A stretch of 64,000 nucleotides of DNA from assembly GCF_026151205.1 (NCBI RefSeq), contig NC_087081.1, positions 2,423,246 to 2,487,245 of the forward strand, in the 5' to 3' direction. Made by a program: the position numbers and the translations under genes. Below the pieces are notes generated by a model that had not been told where the DNA came from, did not search any database, and worked only from the letters and a program-made list of their open reading frames with translations. The DNA is from Bolinopsis microptera (taxonomy: Eukaryota; Ctenophora; Tentaculata; Lobata; Bolinopsidae). This document shows, one piece after another, positions 2,300 through 60,955 of this stretch (positions are counted from its first letter, which is position 1; each line of letters opens with the position of its first letter).

Positions 2300-2890
2300 C
2301 TTGTAGAATGTAGAGATAGTTTGCGGAGTAGCAGAGGAGGTTTAGAGTGAACTTTGTTGATGAGTTGTGAGGTTTTTGCAAGATTGGTGTACCGTAAACT
2401 ATAGATAACAATTACAAGATATTATATCCTTTTATATCTGAGCCGAGGTTAACCTGGTTCCAGAAGATTCCATCGCAGGAGAGTCTGGTTACACAATTGA
2501 TTGGATCGAATAGTCAGGATCAGAATATTTGTAATACTGTTATACTGCCTCATTGCCTGTAAATCACGTGACCTCTCGACCAATCAACCTCACCCATCGG
2601 TGTCACATGGAATCTGATTGCACGGGAATTACCCGATCACCTGATCAATAGGCAACCGGCAAGCTTGATAGACTGCCAGGGATAATTTTTGCAAATCCGT
2701 TAAAGAAACAGAAGTGCAGACGCCTTAAACCTCCTAAATTCCAAAGACTTGTGACCCTATTGTAACCCTTGTAACCCCCATTGATAATAAGTAAAGTTAA
2801 TAACTACTCACAATAGTGGAGCCCATAAACAGGGCTATAGTTGAGGTTTACAAGAAGTGTAGTACAGTGTTCCAGAGAGTCCGGGTTCTT
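2300..2890. other. Intergenic, no gene seen
   Basis: No coding signal. It leads into the tandem array that begins near 2900. Confidence 0.5.
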
Positions 2891-2897
2891 GGGACGA

Positions 2898-3865
2898 CTT
2901 ATCAGCTTAGCGTGATACAGTTGGAACTGAGAAGATTAGTCGTTAATTAATTAATTAATTAGAAGAATTAGAAGCTTAGCGTGGTACAGTTGGAACTGAG
3001 AGGATTAGTCGTTAATTAATTAATTAATTAATTAATTAGAAGCTTAGTGTGGTACAGTTGAAACTGAGAAGATTAGTCGTTAATTAATCAATTAATTAGA
3101 AGAATTAGAAGCTTAGCGTGGTACAGTTGAAACTGAGAGGATTAGTCGTTAATTAATTAGTTAATTAGAAGCTTAGCGTGGTACAGTTGGAACTGAGAGG
3201 ATTAGTCGTTAATTAATTAGTTAATTAGAAGCTTAGCGTGATACAGTTGGAACTGAGAGGATTAGTCGTTAATTAATTAATTAGTTAATTAGAAGCTTAG
3301 CGTGGTACAGTTGGAACTGAGAGGATTAGTCGTCAATTAATTAATTAGATAATTATCAGCTTAGCGTGGTACAGTTGAAACTGAGAGGATTAGTCGTTAA
3401 TTAATAAGTTAATTAGAAGCTTAGCGTGGTACAGTTGAAACTGAGAGGATTAATCATTAATTAATTGATTAGTTAATTAGAAGCTTAGCGTGGTACAGTT
3501 GAAACTGAGAGGATTAATCATTAATTAGTTAATTAGTTAATTAGAAGCTTAGCGTGGTACAGTTGGAACTGAGAGGATTAGTCGTTAATTAATTAATTAA
3601 TTAATTAGAAGCTTAGCGTGGTACAGTTGGAACTGAGAGGATTAATTGTTTATCAATTAATTAGTTAATTAGAAGCTTAGCGTGGTACAGTTGGAACTGA
3701 GATGATTAGTCGTTAATTAATTAATTAGTTAATTATCAGCTTAGCGTGGTACAGTTGAAACTGAGAGGATTAATCATTAATTAGTTAATTAGTTAATTAG
3801 AAGCTTAGCGTGGTACAGTTGAAACTGAGAGGATTAATCATTAATTAATTAATTAGTTAATTAGT
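2898..3865 (+). repeat. 60-65 bp satellite-like tandem array, left block (about 15 copies)
   Basis: Each unit has a conserved core (AGAAGCTTAGCGTGGTACAG, then TTGGAACTGAGAGGATTAGTCG) and a variable AT linker made of TTAATTAA steps. Unit length varies through the linker. I count about 15 cores. All copies point the same way and match the block at 5197-5690. Confidence 0.93.
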
Positions 3866-33800: not shown

Positions 33801-35328
33801 TTGTATATATACATTCGCATTCTTCGCTATGTTTTCATTGAAATACGCGTACATTTAAGTATCCAATACATTTTTATGTATACTTTTCTCCAAAAAGGAG
33901 CAGAGGCGATTCTAGTCGATGAATTTGTTCCAAAGACGCGTGCGTGTGGATTGGGTGTCAAATTACACCCACAGTGAAGCAAGAAGGGTGTAACACAAGT
34001 AATGTACCATGGTACACTGTATGTACATTTTACAAAAAGAGTGTAACAAGTTATGTACCATGGTAAGCTGTATATAAATTTTACAAGATGGGTGTAACAC
34101 AAGTAATGTACCAAATAACGGAGTAGTTCGCTGTTTATTAGTCTCATGATTGAAATACTGATATCTGGATATTATCCGGTTGGAAGAGACAAGGACAAGT
34201 GAAACAAGGAAGTTAGGAGTAAGGGCAAATTTTCGGCGTCAACGCCATCTTCAGGCTAAAATTGTTATAAATGTTAGTATATAATAAATGCTTCTATACT
34301 AGTTAAAATGCTAAATTAAAATTACACACACTGAATACAGGTTACATCAAATGGTATTGTACATTACATTGAAAATAGTGATGTACACACGTTTTACACT
34401 CTGTCCAAGTACATAATATCTACTGAACAGCAGGGTCGTGTGCTATTTGTTTAAATTTGTCTTTGAATATGTTGTAAAAGAAATCCCTTAAGCTTCTCGC
34501 ACTCTTCTTTGTTATTGATACTAGGTTTAAATAAATTAATGTAGTAAGCTTCTGTCACTTTACGTTTAATGGTCAACAACGGTTACCAAGACCCACGACG
34601 TATAAACAAAACAGGACGACTTCACCCTCTCTCACCTACAACACGTCATAACCCTTCATCATCAAACATACAAGATACCGACCACGTAACATGCACTCTA
34701 CCATTCATCAACGAGCCATTTTCCAAAGAAGTCACTCAATTTGCCCTCTCACACAACTTACCGGTCAAATTCATATTCACACCAGGTAAGAAACTCTCAG
34801 AGATCTTATGTTCATCACGACCACACGACAAACCACACTGCACCATACCAAACTGTATCATATGTCCACTCATCACAACAAATCACGACTGCAAACCAAA
34901 ATGTGTCATATACAAAGTTACATGTAAATTATGTCAAGAGCTATATATAGGGGAAACGAGTAGAACAGCACACGATAGATTTTCAGAGCATCGAAGAGCA
35001 GTCAACAGGCCTTTAACCTATCCTGATAATGCGTTGGCTGCTCATTATTCAGAGTTTCACGATAACATAGAACCAGATATTTCCTTCGATATTTTAGAAA
35101 TTAACTTATATAGCACCATTAAACGTAAAGTGACAGAAGCTTACTACATTAATTTATTTAAACCTAGTATCAATAACAAAGAAGAGTGCGAGAAGCTTAA
35201 GGGATTTCTTTTACAACATATTCAAAGACAAATTTAAACAAATAGCACACGACCCTGCTGTTCAGTAGATATTATGTACTTGGACAGAGTGTAAAACGTG
35301 TGTACATCACTATTTTCAATGTAATGTA

Positions 35329-35362
<34 letters not shown>

Positions 35363-38300
35363 AATGGCATAAATGGAGAAAATGGAGAATTACTCATAGG
35401 TTTTTCCATTTTCTCCATAGAAATAGTCTCCATTTTATGCCATTTTATGCCATTTTATGCCATTGAAAACCTGAAAAATTTAGAATTTCGAGAAAAATTA
35501 TTTTAAAAAAAGATATTTTCGGCCAATAATGAACAGGGTAACATGAAACATGGAGAAAAGTGGTTTTTAGAAAAACTTTGAAAAATTTTGAAAAATGTTG
35601 ACTTAGAAAATGTTCGGTCCGAGTCATTTTCGATACGTACCTCCCGTATCGAGAGCTCCCGATTCCGAGCTTGTGTTGCAAAGGGGAGGCCTGCCTTCCG
35701 AGATCGCATTACCTCGAGTCCAAAATTGTGTATCGAGGGGAAGGTGTGGACTTCGAAAAACCGAAAAAATATTTTCGGCAAATAATGAACAGGGTAGCAT
35801 GAAACGTGGAGAAAAGCGGTTTTCAGAAATTTGAAAAATTTTCAGAAATTTGAAAAATTTCGGCTTATAATGAACAAGGTAGCATGAAACGTGGAGAAAA
35901 GTGTTTTTCAGAAAAACTTTGAAAAATTTTGACTTAAAAAATTACCCCTCGGGTACACAATTTTGGACTCGAGGCTTCCCCCTGGTAATGCGATCTCGGA
36001 AGGCAGGCCTCCCCCTCAGTGCGAGCTTGTTTCGACTTTCGAGGATGTAGGTCTCACTTCTCAGTGCCTATTACTCCCCTATTACTCACTCCTGCTGTAG
36101 CCTGTAGAAATAACTTTACACTAGGCTTGAGTAATTATGAGTTTGCCTGAAGTGTGCCTCTACTAACCTAGTATAAACATCTAGTAGCCTACTATGAGCT
36201 TTCACAAGCTTGTTACGCCCCTAGTAAGCGTAAATAAACATGTTAGGATGTCCAATTTAGGTGTTAAATGGTGTTAAAGATGAAATTTCGAAGACAAAAT
36301 TCATGGCATAAAATGGAGAAAATGGAGAATTACTCATGGGTTTTTCCATTTTCTCCATAGAAAAAGTCTCCATTTTATGCCATTTTATGCCATTTTATGC
36401 CATTGGCCCCCCCCCCCCCCCCCTAATGTACAATACCATTTGATGTAACCTGTATTCAGTGTGTGTAATTTTAATTTAGCATTTTAACTAGTATAGAAGC
36501 ATTTATTATATACTAACATTTATAACAATTTTAGCCTGAAGATGGCGTTGACGCCGAAAATTTGCCCTTACTCCTAACTTCCTTGTTTCACTTGTCCTTG
36601 TCTCTTCCAACCGGATAATATCCAGATATCAGTACAAGTAATGTACCATAGTACTCTGTACATAAATTTTACAAGATGGGTGTAACACAGGTAATAGGGT
36701 CCGGACTCTACGGCGTAAGACTCTACGGCGTGAGACTCTACGGTGGGTTAGGGTTAGGGTTAGGTTAAAGTCTTACGCCGTAGAGTCCCGGACCCGTTAC
36801 CTAATTAAGGTTGTGATTCGAGTTTCATGGTGAAATTCAGGGTATGTTTAAAGAACTGGGTGAGATAACAGTCTGTGTTTTAAGTAAAATTAACATGACG
36901 CACGTATTTCCCACTGAACCGCAACAGATTTTCACCCAAAGGCCAAAACACACTCTGGGCCACATAAAATTGTGAAATTGTGAAACTATCTAAAATGTGA
37001 AACTATCTAGCTAACTAGCTAACTTCAGACATCATTGTTAATGTAATTAATATGAAAGACGTGGAACCTGATAGTCTCTATAAAACAAACAATTATTGAC
37101 ATTATTTTCCCCGTTTACGTTGATCCCCTGGTAATTTAACACACTGTTACATTACCGAAGATTGTGACGAACTATTTAACCTATATGTACCAGTCGCGAG
37201 ATCAAGCGGGAGCCTAGACCAACATTGGTCATGTTCTCGGATATTTTCCCGAGTAATGGCTGACTACTCCGTTTTTGTAGTAGTCGGTGATTGGTCAGTC
37301 TTTGGTATCACGTGTGTGGTCACGTGTACACACGTTCAGGGGTATATTACACTGCCCTGGAATAATCCCTCAGTGTAAGAGTGTACATTTGCATATCACA
37401 TAAGGCCCAAGGGTTATTATATACAGATATACCGGCTGGTGTACATTGTCTCTGACCCGTATAAGAAAGGTTGTTAGATCATTGGTTGGGCACTGTTTTC
37501 TAAGTTTAAGAAGATTGGTATAGAAAATAGAAATTTCAACAGTTCACGAACTTATCATTTTGGATATTATAAGATTTATGGCATTTTAAAACTTACAATC
37601 GTATTCTATACTAAAAGTTGGTACGTTCGATCCCCAGTCATGTGAGAACCACAATTATGTAAGAATGGGGGTACAGGTGGTCTATCATATTAATCGCTTG
37701 AGATTTCTGTTTGCATCTCTCATGAACAATTTATTTTGTTAACTGACATGCTTATTAATTAACAAATTAGTTAATTGATTATCTAATAAAGTACTAAACA
37801 CTAAAAACCCCCCACTTCAGAACTACCCCACTCGAAGCTAGCCAAGCACGTGGAGGATCGTGTAGCTAACTACATGAAGACATGTGACATGGGCGGGAAC
37901 GTTGGAGAGGTGGTGATTCGAGTCCTTAGCTCTTTCGACAAGTTTGTCGAGGTCAAACCCCTCTTCAGGGCTAGGTAAGCTTATTTTTGCTTTTACTTAA
38001 GTTTAGGTATAGTTATTTGTAAACTCCCTCTTGCTAGTTTAACTTTTGCTTTCGGGTTGATCCTCTCTTCAGAAATGTATGTTGTAATTTTAACACTACT
38101 ATATAACAAATAATTTGGAGAAACGATGTAACAGAATCGATATATTTTAATGTTGCCATGGGGTGGCAAGTCCCTATACATCGTGGTCCGATAGTTTCAT
38201 CGCGTCTTAATATAACACTGTAAATCTAACTCTTCGATAGTTTTAATAAACATCTCCAAGAGCTAATCAGTCCTGCGTGAAAGACTACTAAACTTTCTAA

Positions 38301-50450: not shown

Positions 50451-50453
50451 TAA

Positions 50454-50624
50454 GGGGTCGTTCACATATTGCGTAATCATTTTTTTGGAACATTTTTACC
50501 CCCCCCCCCCCCCCCCCCCCGTAATCAGTTTTACACATAGCTATTGTGTCAAAATTACACTAGCGTAATCATTCGGAAACACCCCCCCCCCCCTCAGCTG
50601 ATTACGTAATATGCGAACGACCCC
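50454..50624. mobile_element. PIF/Harbinger-type MITE (171 bp), TAA target duplication
   Basis: TIRs GGGGTCGTTCACATATT and the complement of GGGGTCGTTCGCATATT continue to GCGTAATCA (24 of 26 match). TAA lies on both sides (50451-50453, 50625-50627). TIRs starting GGG with a TAA/TWA duplication point to PIF/Harbinger. A poly(C) run of about 23 and a second run are internal. Confidence 0.85.
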
Positions 50625-50627
50625 TAA

Positions 50628-54257: not shown

Positions 54258-55916
54258 CAGGAGGTGACCGGGACATGATTTTAGGCCTGACCGGGACCGG
54301 GACCGGGACCGGGATACAAAATGTGACTTGACCGGGACCGGGACCGGGACTGAGATTATCAATTTACCGTGACCGGGACCAATAATTTCTGGGATTTCTA
54401 TCTTACCGGGACCGGGACCGGGACCAACAATCCAATTTTACCGGGATGACCGGGATGACCGGGACCAAAACTGGTATTCTCATATTGAAAGCTGCAACTT
54501 TCATTTACATTATAATTGAACAATTTGAATAAGTAATAACTAGAATATTAAATTAGAAAAAACTTTTAAAAAACCGTCAATATGGGGCATGGGCCTAATG
54601 TACTACACCAATAATGTTCATGTACTGATTACTCAAGTTCACCCTCATTCCTCATTCCTCAATCAATGATCCCTCAAATTATTCAACAGTTTCATTCTCC
54701 AATTCCAATTGACAATTGGGCGTAGCCCGAGTTGAAAACTTGATGTTAGTTTGCACTTATGAGTTATGTAACGATATTAGTTACCTAAACTTGTTTAGCA
54801 ATTTTAAACATTGTGTTATTTTGCTCAGAAGTTGTTTAAAGATGAAATTCACAATGAATGAAAGTAAAAACTTAAAATCACAGTGAATGAAATTATGTGA
54901 AAGATCCCGGTCAAAATCCCGGCAAATTTGAGTGATTGACCGGGACCGGGACCGGGACCGGGACCAAGAATCCTGAATTAACCGGGACGGGACCGGGACC
55001 GGGATCATAAATCAGCATTTGACCGGGACCGGGGGGGGGGGGGGGGGGGGGGGGGGTGATGCAACGTCAATTAATGTCAATTAATGTCAATTAATGTCAA
55101 TTAATGTCAATGTCAGTTTTGCAAAATTTTGGAATACTGACATTAATTGACACGATATTTTTCGACCAGAGATTATGTAGTTCTACCATATTTTTAGCAC
55201 TTTAGAACGTTTATATCATCAATTTATTCACTACTTTCACATATGGAAATGTGAAATGTGAAAAATTCAGATCATTAAACAATAAAACTAAAATAAAACG
55301 GTTTTCCGAAATTTAATTTTCTTAAATGGGCGTGGCCATCCAAGGGCGTGGTTCTCAACATCATCAGAACTTAAAACCCACATTAAACGAAATGCCTTCA
55401 TGACATTTATATTTGAATAACGAATCTTAAACAGCTAACATTACTCCTTCATGCTAAAAAAGCCGATTCTAGATATTTTACCTGTATAAGAAACCAATAA
55501 AATATGGGCGTGGCCGGTGGGGACCGAAGATGGAAGAGTTGGAAGCTAAATTTTTTTTGGTGGTCTTTGAACCTCAGGATCAACAGATAAGAACATAATC
55601 ATAATTATTCAAGGACATTTTGTTTTTTTTTTAACCGGTCTAACTTACATAGACGTGAATATCTATCGAATAATGATAATCTCAAATTTCAAGACAAATT
55701 AATGTCAATTAATGTCAATTAATGTCAATTAATGTCAATTAATGTCAATGTCAATTTGGGGTTTTTATGGAATACTGACATTAATTGACGTTGCATCACC
55801 CCCAGACCGGGACCGCGACCGGGATGAAAAATGTGACTTGACCCGGTTGACCGGGACCGGGACCGGGATAGCTCAAAATTGCCAATCCCGGTACCGGGAT
55901 TCCCGGTCACCTCCTG
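54258..55916. mobile_element. hAT element (1659 bp) with GACCGGGA arrays, 8-bp TSD, nested insertion
   Basis: GGGTCGAT flanks both ends (54250-54257, 55917-55924). TIR is CAGGAGGTGACCGGGA on both sides. Subterminal regions are long arrays of GACCGGGACCGGGA. The element at 55031-55803 is nested in the right array; without it the host is about 890 bp. No transposase frame is present. Confidence 0.9.
55031..55803. mobile_element. Second poly(G)/poly(C)-capped foldback element (about 773 bp)
   Basis: Starts with 26 G and ends with 5 C. Behind the caps TGATGCAACGTCAATTAATG is perfectly inverted at the two ends. Each end has a self-complementary block (55057-55152; about 55690-55798) with TGTCAATTAA tandem copies and GGAATACTGACATTAATTGA; the blocks are direct copies of each other, the same plan as 35330-36423 with unrelated sequence. 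The target duplication cannot be read because the site lies in a GACCGGGA array. Confidence 0.75.
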
Positions 55917-56200: not shown

Positions 56201-57532
56201 GGTAAAATATAGAAATATATGCTGAAGTGAGTGTGGTTTATATAAAACTTTCGGATACATTTTATGAATGAATTTGTGCGTGACTATAAAATTATGGCAT
56301 GACTAGAGCCGCGCACACGTGCCAGCTACCACACATTTGAAACTTATTCTTACAATAACACTAATTACAGTGGAATGTGTAATGTCAAATGGGAGCGGTG
56401 TGAACAGAGCTGAGTGTAGCCGTGTGTACGGAGGAGCTGTATTAAGTGTCATCTAAGAAGATAATATGCCATTATTCCGTTTTATTAATATTACAGTATT
56501 TGGCGACTGGCTGGCCGATGGTGCTGTGTATCTTTTGGAAGGACAATACAAGGTCAGCAATATAAAGTATATCCCCGGGTCAAAATCGGAAAAAATTAGA
56601 ATATTTATATTCTTCGTTAAGATTTACATGATGAACTATATTTTTCGCTTAGATTCGCAAGATAAGCCTGTTTTAGGACTAGTACATGGATTTACATCCA
56701 AATTGGTCAAAAATTGGCTGAGTTATGAGCTTTAAAAAATATGCCCACATTTGGGCATACGATTTTGCCCAAATTTGCTTTTGCCTAAATTCGATCAAAC
56801 TTCAATATTTTTTAATGAGACTAACTCTATGTGAAAGATATACCTCAGTGTTTGTTGAATATAGTGATTACTAAGTAAAAAGACCTCTATGAAAAAAATT
56901 GGGAAAATTGCACATAATATTATCTCGGTTCGGAATACTAGCCAAAATTATGACTTTATTAAAATTGAAATAACTCTATCAGTTTTCAATATTTTTGCAA
57001 GAACTTTTTGGAATCGATTAAGAATTGCATTTCAAGCTTATTGTGCCGGCAAAAATTGTTGATGTAGGCCTCCAAGGAGATATCCGGGTCAAAATCGGAA
57101 AAAATCCTATATTTTAATATACTTTAATATGGTTGCCCCCCCCCCCCCCCCCCCCCCAATGTTTGAGTGACACACTAACTATGCAGTTTTACCTGTTTAG
57201 AGGGGTTTTCAAAGAAAGTTTTAGTTCCCAAAGTCCGTCTCAAATACCAAAAGCAAAACTACCAGTACCATTAGCTTTAAACCTGGGATATCACTAATTT
57301 TACAAATAATAACATAATATCGAGTATGGAGGCCGGAGGGGTTAGAGGATGGTATTAAACTAAAAGTATAACAGCTAGGCTGTAATAATATCCAAGATTG
57401 TCAGAAAATATCGTCTAATCAAGCCAGAAAAGTTTGGTAACTTATCGACTATCGAGTAATCGCACGTACGACAGGTTTCTCGTTTATCTCACCAAAAACT
57501 TCAGCAGCTTTTTTTCTCATCGTCAGATTCAC

Positions 57533-59097: not shown

Positions 59098-60955
59098 ATC
59101 TCGACGAGGGAGCTGGGAGAGATAGAACTTAGCTAAAATGATAGGGAAAGGGTTAAACAAAGTTTTGAAAACATTAAAAACGAAATAGCGTAATCTAAAT
59201 CATTTGATGATTTGAAACCCCCGCCCTGCCCCATCGGCTGATCGGCACGCCCGAGAGCGCGGTAAAATATAGAAATATATGCTGAAGTGAGTGTGGTTTA
59301 TATAAAACTTTCGGATACATTTTATGAATGAATTTGTGCGTGACTATAAAATTATGGCATGACTAGAGCCGCGCACACGTGCCAGTTACCACACATTTGA
59401 AACTTATTCTTACAATAACACTAATTACAGTGGAATGTGTAATGTCAAATGGGAGCGGTGTGAACAGAGCTGAGTGTAGCCGTGTGTACGGAGGAGCTGT
59501 ATTAAGTGTCATCTAAGAAGATAATATGCCATTATTCCGTTTTATTAATATTACAGTATTTGGCGACTGGCTGGCCGATGGTGCTGTGTATCTTTTGGAA
59601 GGACAATACAAGGTCAGCAATATAAAGTATATCCCCGGGTCAAAATCGGAAAAAATTAGAATATTTATATTCTTCGTTAAGATTTACATGATGAACTATA
59701 TTTTTCGCTTAGATTCGCAAGATAAGCCTGTTTTAGGACTAGTACATGGATTTACATCCAAATTGGTCAAAAATTGGCTGAGTTATGAGCTTTAAAAAAT
59801 ATGCCCACATTTGGGCATACGATTTTGCCCAAATTTGCTTTTGCCTAAATTCGATCAAACTTCAATATTTTTTAATGAGACTAACTCTATGTGAAAGATA
59901 TACCTCAGTGTTTGTTGAATATAGTGATTACTAAGTAAAAAGACCTCTATGAAAAAAATTGGGAAAATTGCACATAATATTATCTCGGTTCGGAATACTA
60001 GCCAAAATTATGACTTTATTAAAATTGAAATAACTCTATCAGTTTTCAATATTTTTGCAAGAACTTTTTGGAATCGATTAAGAATTGCATTTCAAGCTTA
60101 TTGTGCCGGCAAAAATTGTTGATGTAGGCCTCCAAGGAGATATCCGGGTCAAAATCGGAAAAAATCCTATATTTTAATATACTTTAATATGGTTGCCCCC
60201 CCCCCCCCCCCCAATGTTTGAGTGACACACTAACTATGCAGTTTTACCTGTTTAGAGGGGTTTTCAAAGAAAGTTTTAGTTCCCAAAGTCCGTCTCAAAT
60301 ACCAAAAGCAAAACTACCAGTACCATTAGCTTTAAACCTGGGATATCACTAATTTTACAAATAATAACATAATATCGAGTATGGAGGCCGGAGGGGTTAG
60401 AGGATGGTATTAAACTAAAAGTATAACAGCTAGGCTGTAATAATATCCAAGATTGTCAGAAAATATCGTCTAATCAAGCCAGAAAAGTTTGGTAACTTAT
60501 CGACTATCGAGTAATCGCACGTACGACAGGTTTCTCGTTTATCTCACCAAAAACTTCAGCAGCTTTTTTTCTCATCGTCAGATTCACTTATTCCATACGT
60601 AATGACCCTCCTGCTTCTATATCGTCCTCTTCAGCTTCTGTCTTTACTGCTCTCTCCGCGGCCATCTGTAAATGGGGGGTTGTAAAAAGATAAAAAATGT
60701 AGTATACAGTTTTCAGCCAATCAGAAGACAGAATGAATCAAACGGTTTTTCTTTCCAAACTGATCGCTTGTTCAGGTTAGACGATACGAAATTTCAGTGG
60801 CCTTTTACTCCCAAGTTATAGACATATTTCATTAAAAACACTGTTTGTGGCTCTCGCAAGCTGATCTGTAAATTTTATAGCAAACTTAATATTGTGATAG
60901 TGAATATTTTACCTTGAGCGGGCCCGTCACAGTTGACAAAAAGAAGTATCTCGAC

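What the first reader, a model, noticed from the sequence alone, without database searches (positions are those of the whole stretch)
35330..36423. Transposable element capped by poly(G) and poly(C), with its empty site preserved in the same window
The element begins with 31 G, ends with 17 C, and is flanked by TAATGTAC on both sides. It sits in the 3' UTR of a Penelope copy. The inverted partial Penelope copy just upstream (34158-34573) carries the same junction with one TAATGTAC and no insert, so insertion and 8-bp duplication are directly demonstrated. Homopolymer caps as transposon ends are not a feature of any superfamily I can name. The caps could form G-quadruplex or i-motif structures.
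Basis: seen in the sequence. Interest (0 to 1): 0.85.

Follow-up and report, generated by a model that had tools for sequence, protein, structure and literature searches.

The report
Transposons with slippage-grown poly-G ends
A short non-coding jumping element, present in hundreds of copies in what is probably a comb-jelly genome, starts with a run of G and ends with a run of C; the runs look real, but their great length is best explained by ordinary copying slippage of a short G-tract at the element's ends, a habit shared by several other jumping elements of the same genome.

Summary
The 1,094-bp element is capped G31/C17 and flanked by TAATGTAC; the inverted Penelope-like fragment is its empty site (416 of 416 bases, one TAATGTAC). 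It belongs to a family ("A") with 331 ends of one type and 154 of the other (reversed controls 0). A duplication of at least 8 bp is found in 40 of 45 two-ended copies (3 of 1,980 mispaired flank pairs), 43 of 45 if interrupted caps are read by eye. Caps run from 7 to 53.

The caps do not define a superfamily: families B (8 bp), C (about 6 bp) and D (TTAA) also have G-tract ends. B gives the mechanism. Its own tract is five; 53 of 53 ends whose run was 5-6 at insertion are unchanged, four of five that started at 8 are now 15-26. Four sets of duplicated insertions differ in run length. So: non-autonomous cut-and-paste elements whose terminal G-tract grows by slippage once long enough. No transposase partner was found for A. 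A similar case, terminal (GA)n of pineapple MITEs, is in print.

The parts
35322..35329 (+). left copy of the 8-bp target-site duplication TAATGTAC
35330..35360 (+). left cap, G31 (expanded G-tract at the start of the TIR)
35361..35466 (+). left subterminal block, hairpin-forming, with 9-10-bp tandem units (AAATGGAGA x2.1; CCATTTTATG x3.5)
35467..36299 (+). interior with diverged direct repeats and a 31-nt perfect inverted repeat (35683-35713 / 35984-36014)
   Evidence: longest frame wholly inside the element 112 aa; the two longest frames, 112 and 105 aa, have no Pfam match at E 0.1
36300..36406 (+). right subterminal block, direct repeat of the left one (98% over 95 nt), hairpin-forming
36407..36423 (+). 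right cap, C17
36424..36431 (+). right copy of the target-site duplication TAATGTAC
34158..34573 (-). inverted partial Penelope-like copy carrying the unoccupied target site, 416 of 416 identical to the joined flanks
34548..35237 (+). host element of the insertion: open frame with a sub-threshold GIY-YIG match (Penelope-like)
55031..55805 (+). a family-B element in the same window, G26 (read as 5 own + 3 target-site G, then grown; its 8-bp match has one mismatch) and C5 (not grown)
57136..57157 (+). right cap (C22) of a family-C element
60196..60212 (+). the same family-C end in a duplicated copy of that stretch, C17

Best explanation
The element is a non-autonomous (MITE-like) cut-and-paste DNA transposon. 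SHOWN: it is repeated, has terminal inverted repeats that begin with a G-tract, makes an 8-bp duplication, and its empty site lies in the same window. SHOWN for family B, INFERRED for A, C and D: the inherited terminal tract is short and carried by the element; G (or C) at the edge of the duplicated target adds to it; runs of 5-6 stay put, runs of about 7-8 and more grow by replication slippage after insertion, each end on its own. That run lengths change after insertion is shown by four sets of duplicated insertions; that slippage is the process is inferred. INFERRED: a transposase supplied in trans, Mutator-like or Merlin-like for the 8-bp families, recognises the TIR and subterminal repeats; grown caps can be carried along by later transposition.
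For: A: 39 of 39 copies fetched from hits of a query that begins just inside the cap (L004-L042) have left caps of G8-G53. The two caps of a copy are uncorrelated (r = 0.03, n = 45). B: 53 of 53 ends that started at 5-6 are still 5-6; of 5 ends that started at 8, the lengths now are 8, 15, 21, 21, 26. Same insertion, duplicated: B copies with nearly identical flanks have 8, 13, 15 and 26 G, the other end C5 in all three where it is seen; A copies L030/L031 G15/C19 and G15/C26; C copies L128/L129 G9/C14 and G10/C12; window C22 and C17. Of the 29 rows, 26 hold a long run by my count, and 21 of the 26 have lost the T that ends the five-G tract. D: 9 at 9 of 22 ends, tail to 34. Long C-runs also sit inside another MITE (50499-50520, 50582-50593), so growth is not peculiar to ends.
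Against: In A cap length does not rise with divergence (left rho -0.03, p 0.83, n 51; right rho 0.20, p 0.16, n 54): no slow steady growth; fast growth to a broad range, or long caps taken over from donors, is needed. The window copy is young by its empty site yet has G31/C17. The shortest A cap is 7, so its ancestral tract was not seen. In one search the start of runs of 8 or less was set to the observed length and only checked through the 8-bp match, so equality there is partly by construction; one copy set aside (L098) has a 7-bp match and may have lost one C; the window copy needed one mismatch. Three of the five runs that started at 8 (window, L100, L119) are one insertion event, and L119 was fetched because it is long. 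Seven of the 21 T-less rows would start at six, not seven or eight, if only two bases changed. Some caps are interrupted (L008, L013, L061; L142, L145). Run lengths rest on an assembly.
Confidence: 0.8

Rival explanations
1. The caps are made at each transposition by untemplated addition of C to the free 3' ends of the excised element (terminal transferase-like or end-joining polymerase).
For: Caps vary from copy to copy and the two ends are uncorrelated; the element's 3' ends are the C ends on both strands.
Against: B ends are five (plus target-site G/C) at 53 of 53 ends that started short; D has a mode at 9; copies of one insertion differ after the fact.
Confidence: 0.06
2. The elements prefer to insert into existing poly(G) and the caps are target DNA.
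For: Microsatellite-seeking MITEs exist: (TA)n in pineapple (PMC8449440, passages) and Medicago (PMC4486113, listing with start of abstract).
Against: The duplications lie outside the caps; the empty site of the window copy has no G-run.
Confidence: 0.01
3. The long runs are assembly or polishing artefacts.
For: If the genome is Bolinopsis microptera, it was assembled with wtdbg and polished with Illumina reads and pilon (PMC10232365, section read), so long run lengths are doubtful. One cap is assembled as G106, an 8-bp interruption, G62 (L145).
Against: Short tracts are reproduced exactly (B) and long ones follow family and starting length, which an artefact would not know.
Confidence: 0.08
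4. The caps are a selected, functional end structure (for example a G-quadruplex or i-motif that helps synapsis or shields ends) acquired by several families in this lineage. This does not exclude slippage as the way in which they grow.
For: At least four families with three kinds of target site have G-tract ends; TTAA followed by G12 occurs 988 times against 58 for the reversed control.
Against: B is abundant (449 ends) with only five G; runs also grow inside a MITE; the families were found by their G-runs, so the sample is biased.
Confidence: 0.12

Closest known systems
Microsatellite-associated MITEs of pineapple (Ac-mMITEs; PMC8449440, passages seen)
   Same: MITEs, some with 9/10-bp duplications, whose own first and last bases (GA...TC) are thought to have grown into (GA)n/(TC)n by replication slippage after insertion.
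   Different: Dinucleotide, plant, mostly inserted into (TA)n; here a mononucleotide G tract and no microsatellite target.
Mutator-like elements, e.g. Muta1 of Aedes aegypti (PMC5225508, passages seen)
   Same: 8-9-bp duplications; short subterminal tandem repeats of 9-15 bp; many non-autonomous derivatives.
   Different: No MULE transposase found in family A; perfect TIR beyond the cap only 13 bp in the window copy; no cap mentioned in the passages seen.
Merlin (PMC8101967, passages seen)
   Same: TIRs with terminal 5'-GG and 8- or 9-bp duplications; 58 Merlin-domain matches in this genome.
   Different: None of the 14 Merlin loci fetched carries the end motifs of A, B, C or D. In 4 of the 14 (L066, L070, L076, L077) flanking inverted repeats begin GGCA; one such repeat also flanks a MULE locus (L121), so even that is not surely Merlin's.
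Coral CMITEs (PMC2872659, abstract and passages seen)
   Same: MITE families with a conserved interior and different ends: C and D here share an interior at 68% over 448 positions but differ in ends and target sites.
   Different: CMITEs have TTAA targets and piggyBac-type CC[C/T]T ends; D has TTAA but begins with G.

Membership tests
Non-autonomous TIR DNA transposon (MITE-like) | terminal inverted repeats | tested here: met
   30 nt perfect, 17 of them cap; both ends recognised in 45 of 61 loci examined, one end in 16
Non-autonomous TIR DNA transposon (MITE-like) | target-site duplication of fixed length | tested here: met
   8 bp or more in 40 of 45 two-ended copies; 3 of 1,980 mispaired controls
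Non-autonomous TIR DNA transposon (MITE-like) | no transposase of its own, many copies | tested here: met
   longest inner frame 112 aa, no Pfam match for the two longest; 331 and 154 ends
Mutator-like (MULE) | 8-10-bp duplication | tested here: met
   definition from PMC5225508
Mutator-like (MULE) | long TIRs (over 100 bp) | tested here: not met
   perfect TIR of the window copy is 30 nt with the cap; the ~105-bp blocks are direct, not inverted, repeats
Mutator-like (MULE) | subterminal short tandem repeats, common in mosquito MULEs | tested here: met
   10-bp unit x3.5 at both ends
Mutator-like (MULE) | a MULE transposase bounded by the same ends | tested here: inconclusive
   88 MULE-domain matches in the genome; 5 loci fetched, 0 of 5 with the end motifs
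Merlin | terminal 5'-GG and 8-9-bp duplication | tested here: met
   definition from PMC8101967
Merlin | an IS1595-type transposase bounded by the same ends | tested here: inconclusive
   58 matches; 14 loci fetched, 0 of 14 with the end motifs
hAT | hAT transposase bounded by the same ends | tested here: inconclusive
   150 matches, 150 of 366 candidates scored; 1 locus fetched, no end motif
P element | P-type transposase in the genome | tested here: inconclusive
   0 matches to PF21787, but the control rang nowhere
piggyBac (for family D) | TTAA target with CC[C/T]T ends | tested here: not met
   TTAA in 11 of 11 copies, but the ends read G9 or more, then CCAATGG; definition from PMC2872659
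Kolobok-type (for family D and its TTAA relatives; TTAA target and name recalled) | a transposase of that kind bounded by the same G-tract ends | tested here: inconclusive
   L142 has a 140-aa frame matching Pfam PF20700 'Mutator-like transposase' (E 4.3e-15) about 1.9 kb from a poly(C)-TTAA end, but that end differs from D's, its partner end is not in L142, and the left part of L142 is a separate D-like piece

The most novel reading that the evidence does not exclude
In this lineage a terminal G-tract is a convergent, functional end structure of cut-and-paste transposons: families with different transposases (8-bp, about 6-bp and TTAA targets) have each acquired it because a host factor or a G-quadruplex/i-motif at the ends favours transposition or protects excised ends, and its unlimited growth is a tolerated by-product.
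Probability: 0.12. Interest if true: 0.75.

Novelty: new variant of a known kind. Interest (0 to 1): 0.45.

Why it matters
It gives a natural series for how a mononucleotide run is born: hundreds of similar insertions in which the starting G-tract can be read from the duplicated target site, stable at 5-6 and growing from 8. It also warns that poly(G) at a repeat boundary in such a genome can mark a transposon end rather than a sequencing fault, and it makes the question whether such ends matter for transposition directly testable.

Tried and rejected
Merlin as the carrier of the caps: 14 loci fetched, 0 of 14 with the end motifs; three have a G/C run of 9-12 and the rest none of 8 or more. 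MULE: 5 loci, hAT: 1 locus, 0 of 6 with the end motifs; the G20 and G25 runs in L121 and L123 lie beside GATTACG-type sequence resembling the MITE at window 50453-50625, judged by eye. P-type transposase: no match, control silent. Long members as autonomous copies: L078 (family D, 6.8 kb), L143 (TTAA group) and L141 (family C) hold retrotransposon frames (reverse transcriptase in L078 and L143, RNase H in L141); L079 has no frame over 62 aa; L144 none of 110 aa or more. L142 has a transposase fragment (PF20700) near a capped TTAA end but is a composite of two elements. Cap length against age in A: no correlation. The mispaired-flank control says nothing for D, whose target is always TTAA. Literature: the listings (0 papers; open-licence PMC papers only) showed no paper on poly(G)-ended DNA transposons that I could recognise from title and start of abstract; one search was off the point.

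Full report
What is there. The element at 35330-36423 reads TAATGTAC - G31 - CCAATGGCATAAA... - ...TTTATGCCATTGG - C17 - TAATGTAC. The inverted partial Penelope-like copy just upstream is the empty site: its reverse complement (34158-34573) equals the joined flanks of the element at 416 of 416 positions and holds TAATGTAC once. The insertion and the 8-bp duplication are therefore shown, and the insertion is younger than the duplication of the flanking sequence. Inside, two blocks of about 105 bp lie as direct repeats near the ends (98% over 95 nt); each folds on itself better than all 200 shuffles (z -6.4 and -6.3) and holds a 10-bp tandem unit. The longest frame wholly inside is 112 aa; the two longest have no Pfam match.

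The family. The window lies in contig 10 of a 264.65-Mb assembly with 232 contigs. A 340-bp query that begins just inside the left cap matched many copies (40 of 1,549 first-look candidates scored). The right-type end with about five or more G occurs 331 times (up to 2 mismatches; reversed control 0), the left-type end 154 times (control 0). I fetched 60 loci; with the window copy 61 were examined, 45 with both ends recognised and 16 with one. The 39 fetched from hits of the cap-free query (L004-L042) all have left caps, G8-G53. Over the 45 two-ended copies (90 ends) caps range from 7 to 53, median 13. Of the five without, L008, L013 and L061 show an 8-bp duplication by eye once a short interruption of the cap is allowed; L029 and L060 do not.

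Other families with the same kind of end. Nested insertions and the other G-runs of the window led to three more. D (G9 CCAATGGATATTTTTTTGTG..., 350 ends, control 0) sits in TTAA in 11 of 11 copies. TTAA followed by G12 occurs 988 times in the genome against 58 for the reversed pattern, and the eight TTAA loci fetched from that list hold sequence related to D (for seven of them against the eighth; end sequences). The G-tract is thus not the mark of one superfamily. These families were found through their G-runs, so they say nothing about how many families lack them.

How the caps arise. Family B is decisive because its own tract is short. Of 32 B loci, 29 have an 8-bp solution (one with one mismatch, the window copy); set aside were L118 (one end only), L091 (no duplication) and L098 (7-bp match, perhaps one C lost). 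In the 29, the starting length of each run can be read as five plus the G or C that the duplicated target brings to the edge. Of 58 ends, 46 started at 5 and are 5, 7 started at 6 and are 6, and 5 started at 8: these are now 8, 15, 21, 21 and 26. For runs of 8 or less the start was set to the observed length and only checked by the 8-bp match, so the test there is that the match holds. The window copy, L100, L118 and L119 have nearly the same flanks (L118 lacks one 6-bp unit; the window copy has one base changed at the right) and are one insertion that was copied with its surroundings; their G-runs are 26, 8, 13 and 15, while the C-run at the other end is 5 in all three where it is seen. L118 and L119 were fetched because one search showed them to be long, with the expectation that the target had added G; both bore it out. 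Three further sets of duplicated insertions also differ in run length: L030/L031, L128/L129, and the window's C22/C17. Among the 29 genome-wide B rows, by my count 26 hold a long run, of which 21 have lost the T that ends the five-G tract (14 would then start at seven, 7 at six); these may include copies of one another. B is not younger than A: median divergence from consensus 2.0% (26 of 28 loci L090-L117, with one badly aligned outlier) against 1.3% and 0.9% for the left and right parts of A (51 and 54 copies). What separates B from A, C and D is the starting length rather than age. D has 9 at 9 of 22 ends and a tail to 34.

What speaks against a simple clock: in A cap length is not correlated with divergence (rho -0.03 and 0.20, p 0.83 and 0.16), and the young window copy has G31/C17. 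Fast growth to a broad range, or transposition of already grown caps, is needed; I cannot tell these apart. Some caps are interrupted by other bases.

Who moves it. No autonomous copy of A or B was found. Mosquito Mutator-like elements have 8-9-bp duplications and subterminal tandem repeats of 9-15 bp (PMC5225508, passages), and Merlin has terminal GG with 8- or 9-bp duplications (PMC8101967, passages). Both kinds of transposase domain are in the genome (88 and 58 matches). The 14 Merlin, 5 MULE and 1 hAT loci that I fetched carry none of the four end motifs. MULE is my first guess for A and B (about 0.45), Merlin second (about 0.3); both are inference, and the long inverted TIR typical of MULEs is not met. 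For the TTAA group there is a lead: L142 holds a 140-aa frame that matches Pfam PF20700, 'Mutator-like transposase' (E 4.3e-15), about 1.9 kb from a poly(C)-TTAA end (C53, A, C23). That end differs from D's, its partner is not in the locus, and the left 780 bp of L142 is a separate D-like piece, so the frame is not proven to belong to a G-capped element. By recall, TTAA is the target of Kolobok; I did not test that.

Prior knowledge. Growth of a transposon's own end into a microsatellite has been described: in pineapple the GA...TC ends of Mutator-like MITEs are thought to have become (GA)n and (TC)n by slippage after insertion (PMC8449440, passages). I saw no paper on poly(G)-ended DNA transposons in the listings, which cover open-licence papers only. 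The organism is probably the comb jelly Bolinopsis microptera: 265 Mb (table passage of PMC11797021) and 13 chromosome-scale scaffolds (PMC10232365, passages), against 264.65 Mb and at least 13 contigs of 15 Mb or more seen here; but that table gives 346 scaffolds and this assembly has 232, and no marker gene was tested. The published assembly was made with wtdbg and polished with Illumina reads and pilon (section 12 of PMC10232365), so long run lengths are uncertain.

Verdict. It is a clean natural experiment on how G-runs are born, and not a new kind of transposon end unless assays show that the cap matters.

Noticed in passing
window 50453-50625: Another MITE (27-bp TIR AGGGGTCGTTC..., TAA on both sides by eye, Harbinger-like by recall) with C22 and C12 runs in its interior: G/C-run growth away from element ends.
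   Followed up: partly
L142 (G000:C1:1677350-1682330), 2548-2967 minus strand: A 140-aa frame matching Pfam PF20700 'Mutator-like transposase' (E 4.3e-15) about 1.9 kb from a TTAA end capped C53-A-C23; the only transposase fragment seen near a G/C cap.
   Followed up: partly
families C (L126, window 56678-57101) and D (L080): C and D share an interior at 68% over 448 positions although their ends and target sites differ, like the coral CMITEs.
   Followed up: partly
L016 (G000:C6:11386610-11390520): An A copy grown to 3.5 kb by an internal unit: nine further matches to part of the query at 246-bp spacing.
   Followed up: no
L078 (G000:C4:2513850-2520850): A D element with 558-nt perfectly complementary arms around a retrotransposon with a 973-aa reverse-transcriptase frame.
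   Followed up: partly
L066, L070, L076, L077 (Merlin loci), L122 (MULE locus): Inverted repeats built of short tandem units (for example 15-bp CGACAATTGACCCCC in L122); by eye 8-bp duplications in L066, L070 and L076 and 9 bp in L122. The repeat of L070 also flanks a MULE locus, L121.
   Followed up: no
window 36690-36800: A palindrome (ACTCTACGGCGT... / ...ACGCCGTAGAGT) around TTAGGGTTAGGGTTAGG, telomere-like, just right of the element.
   Followed up: no
L145 (G000:C1:3315140-3316870): A TTAA element whose left cap is assembled as G106, an 8-bp interruption, then G62; a good test case for reads.
   Followed up: no
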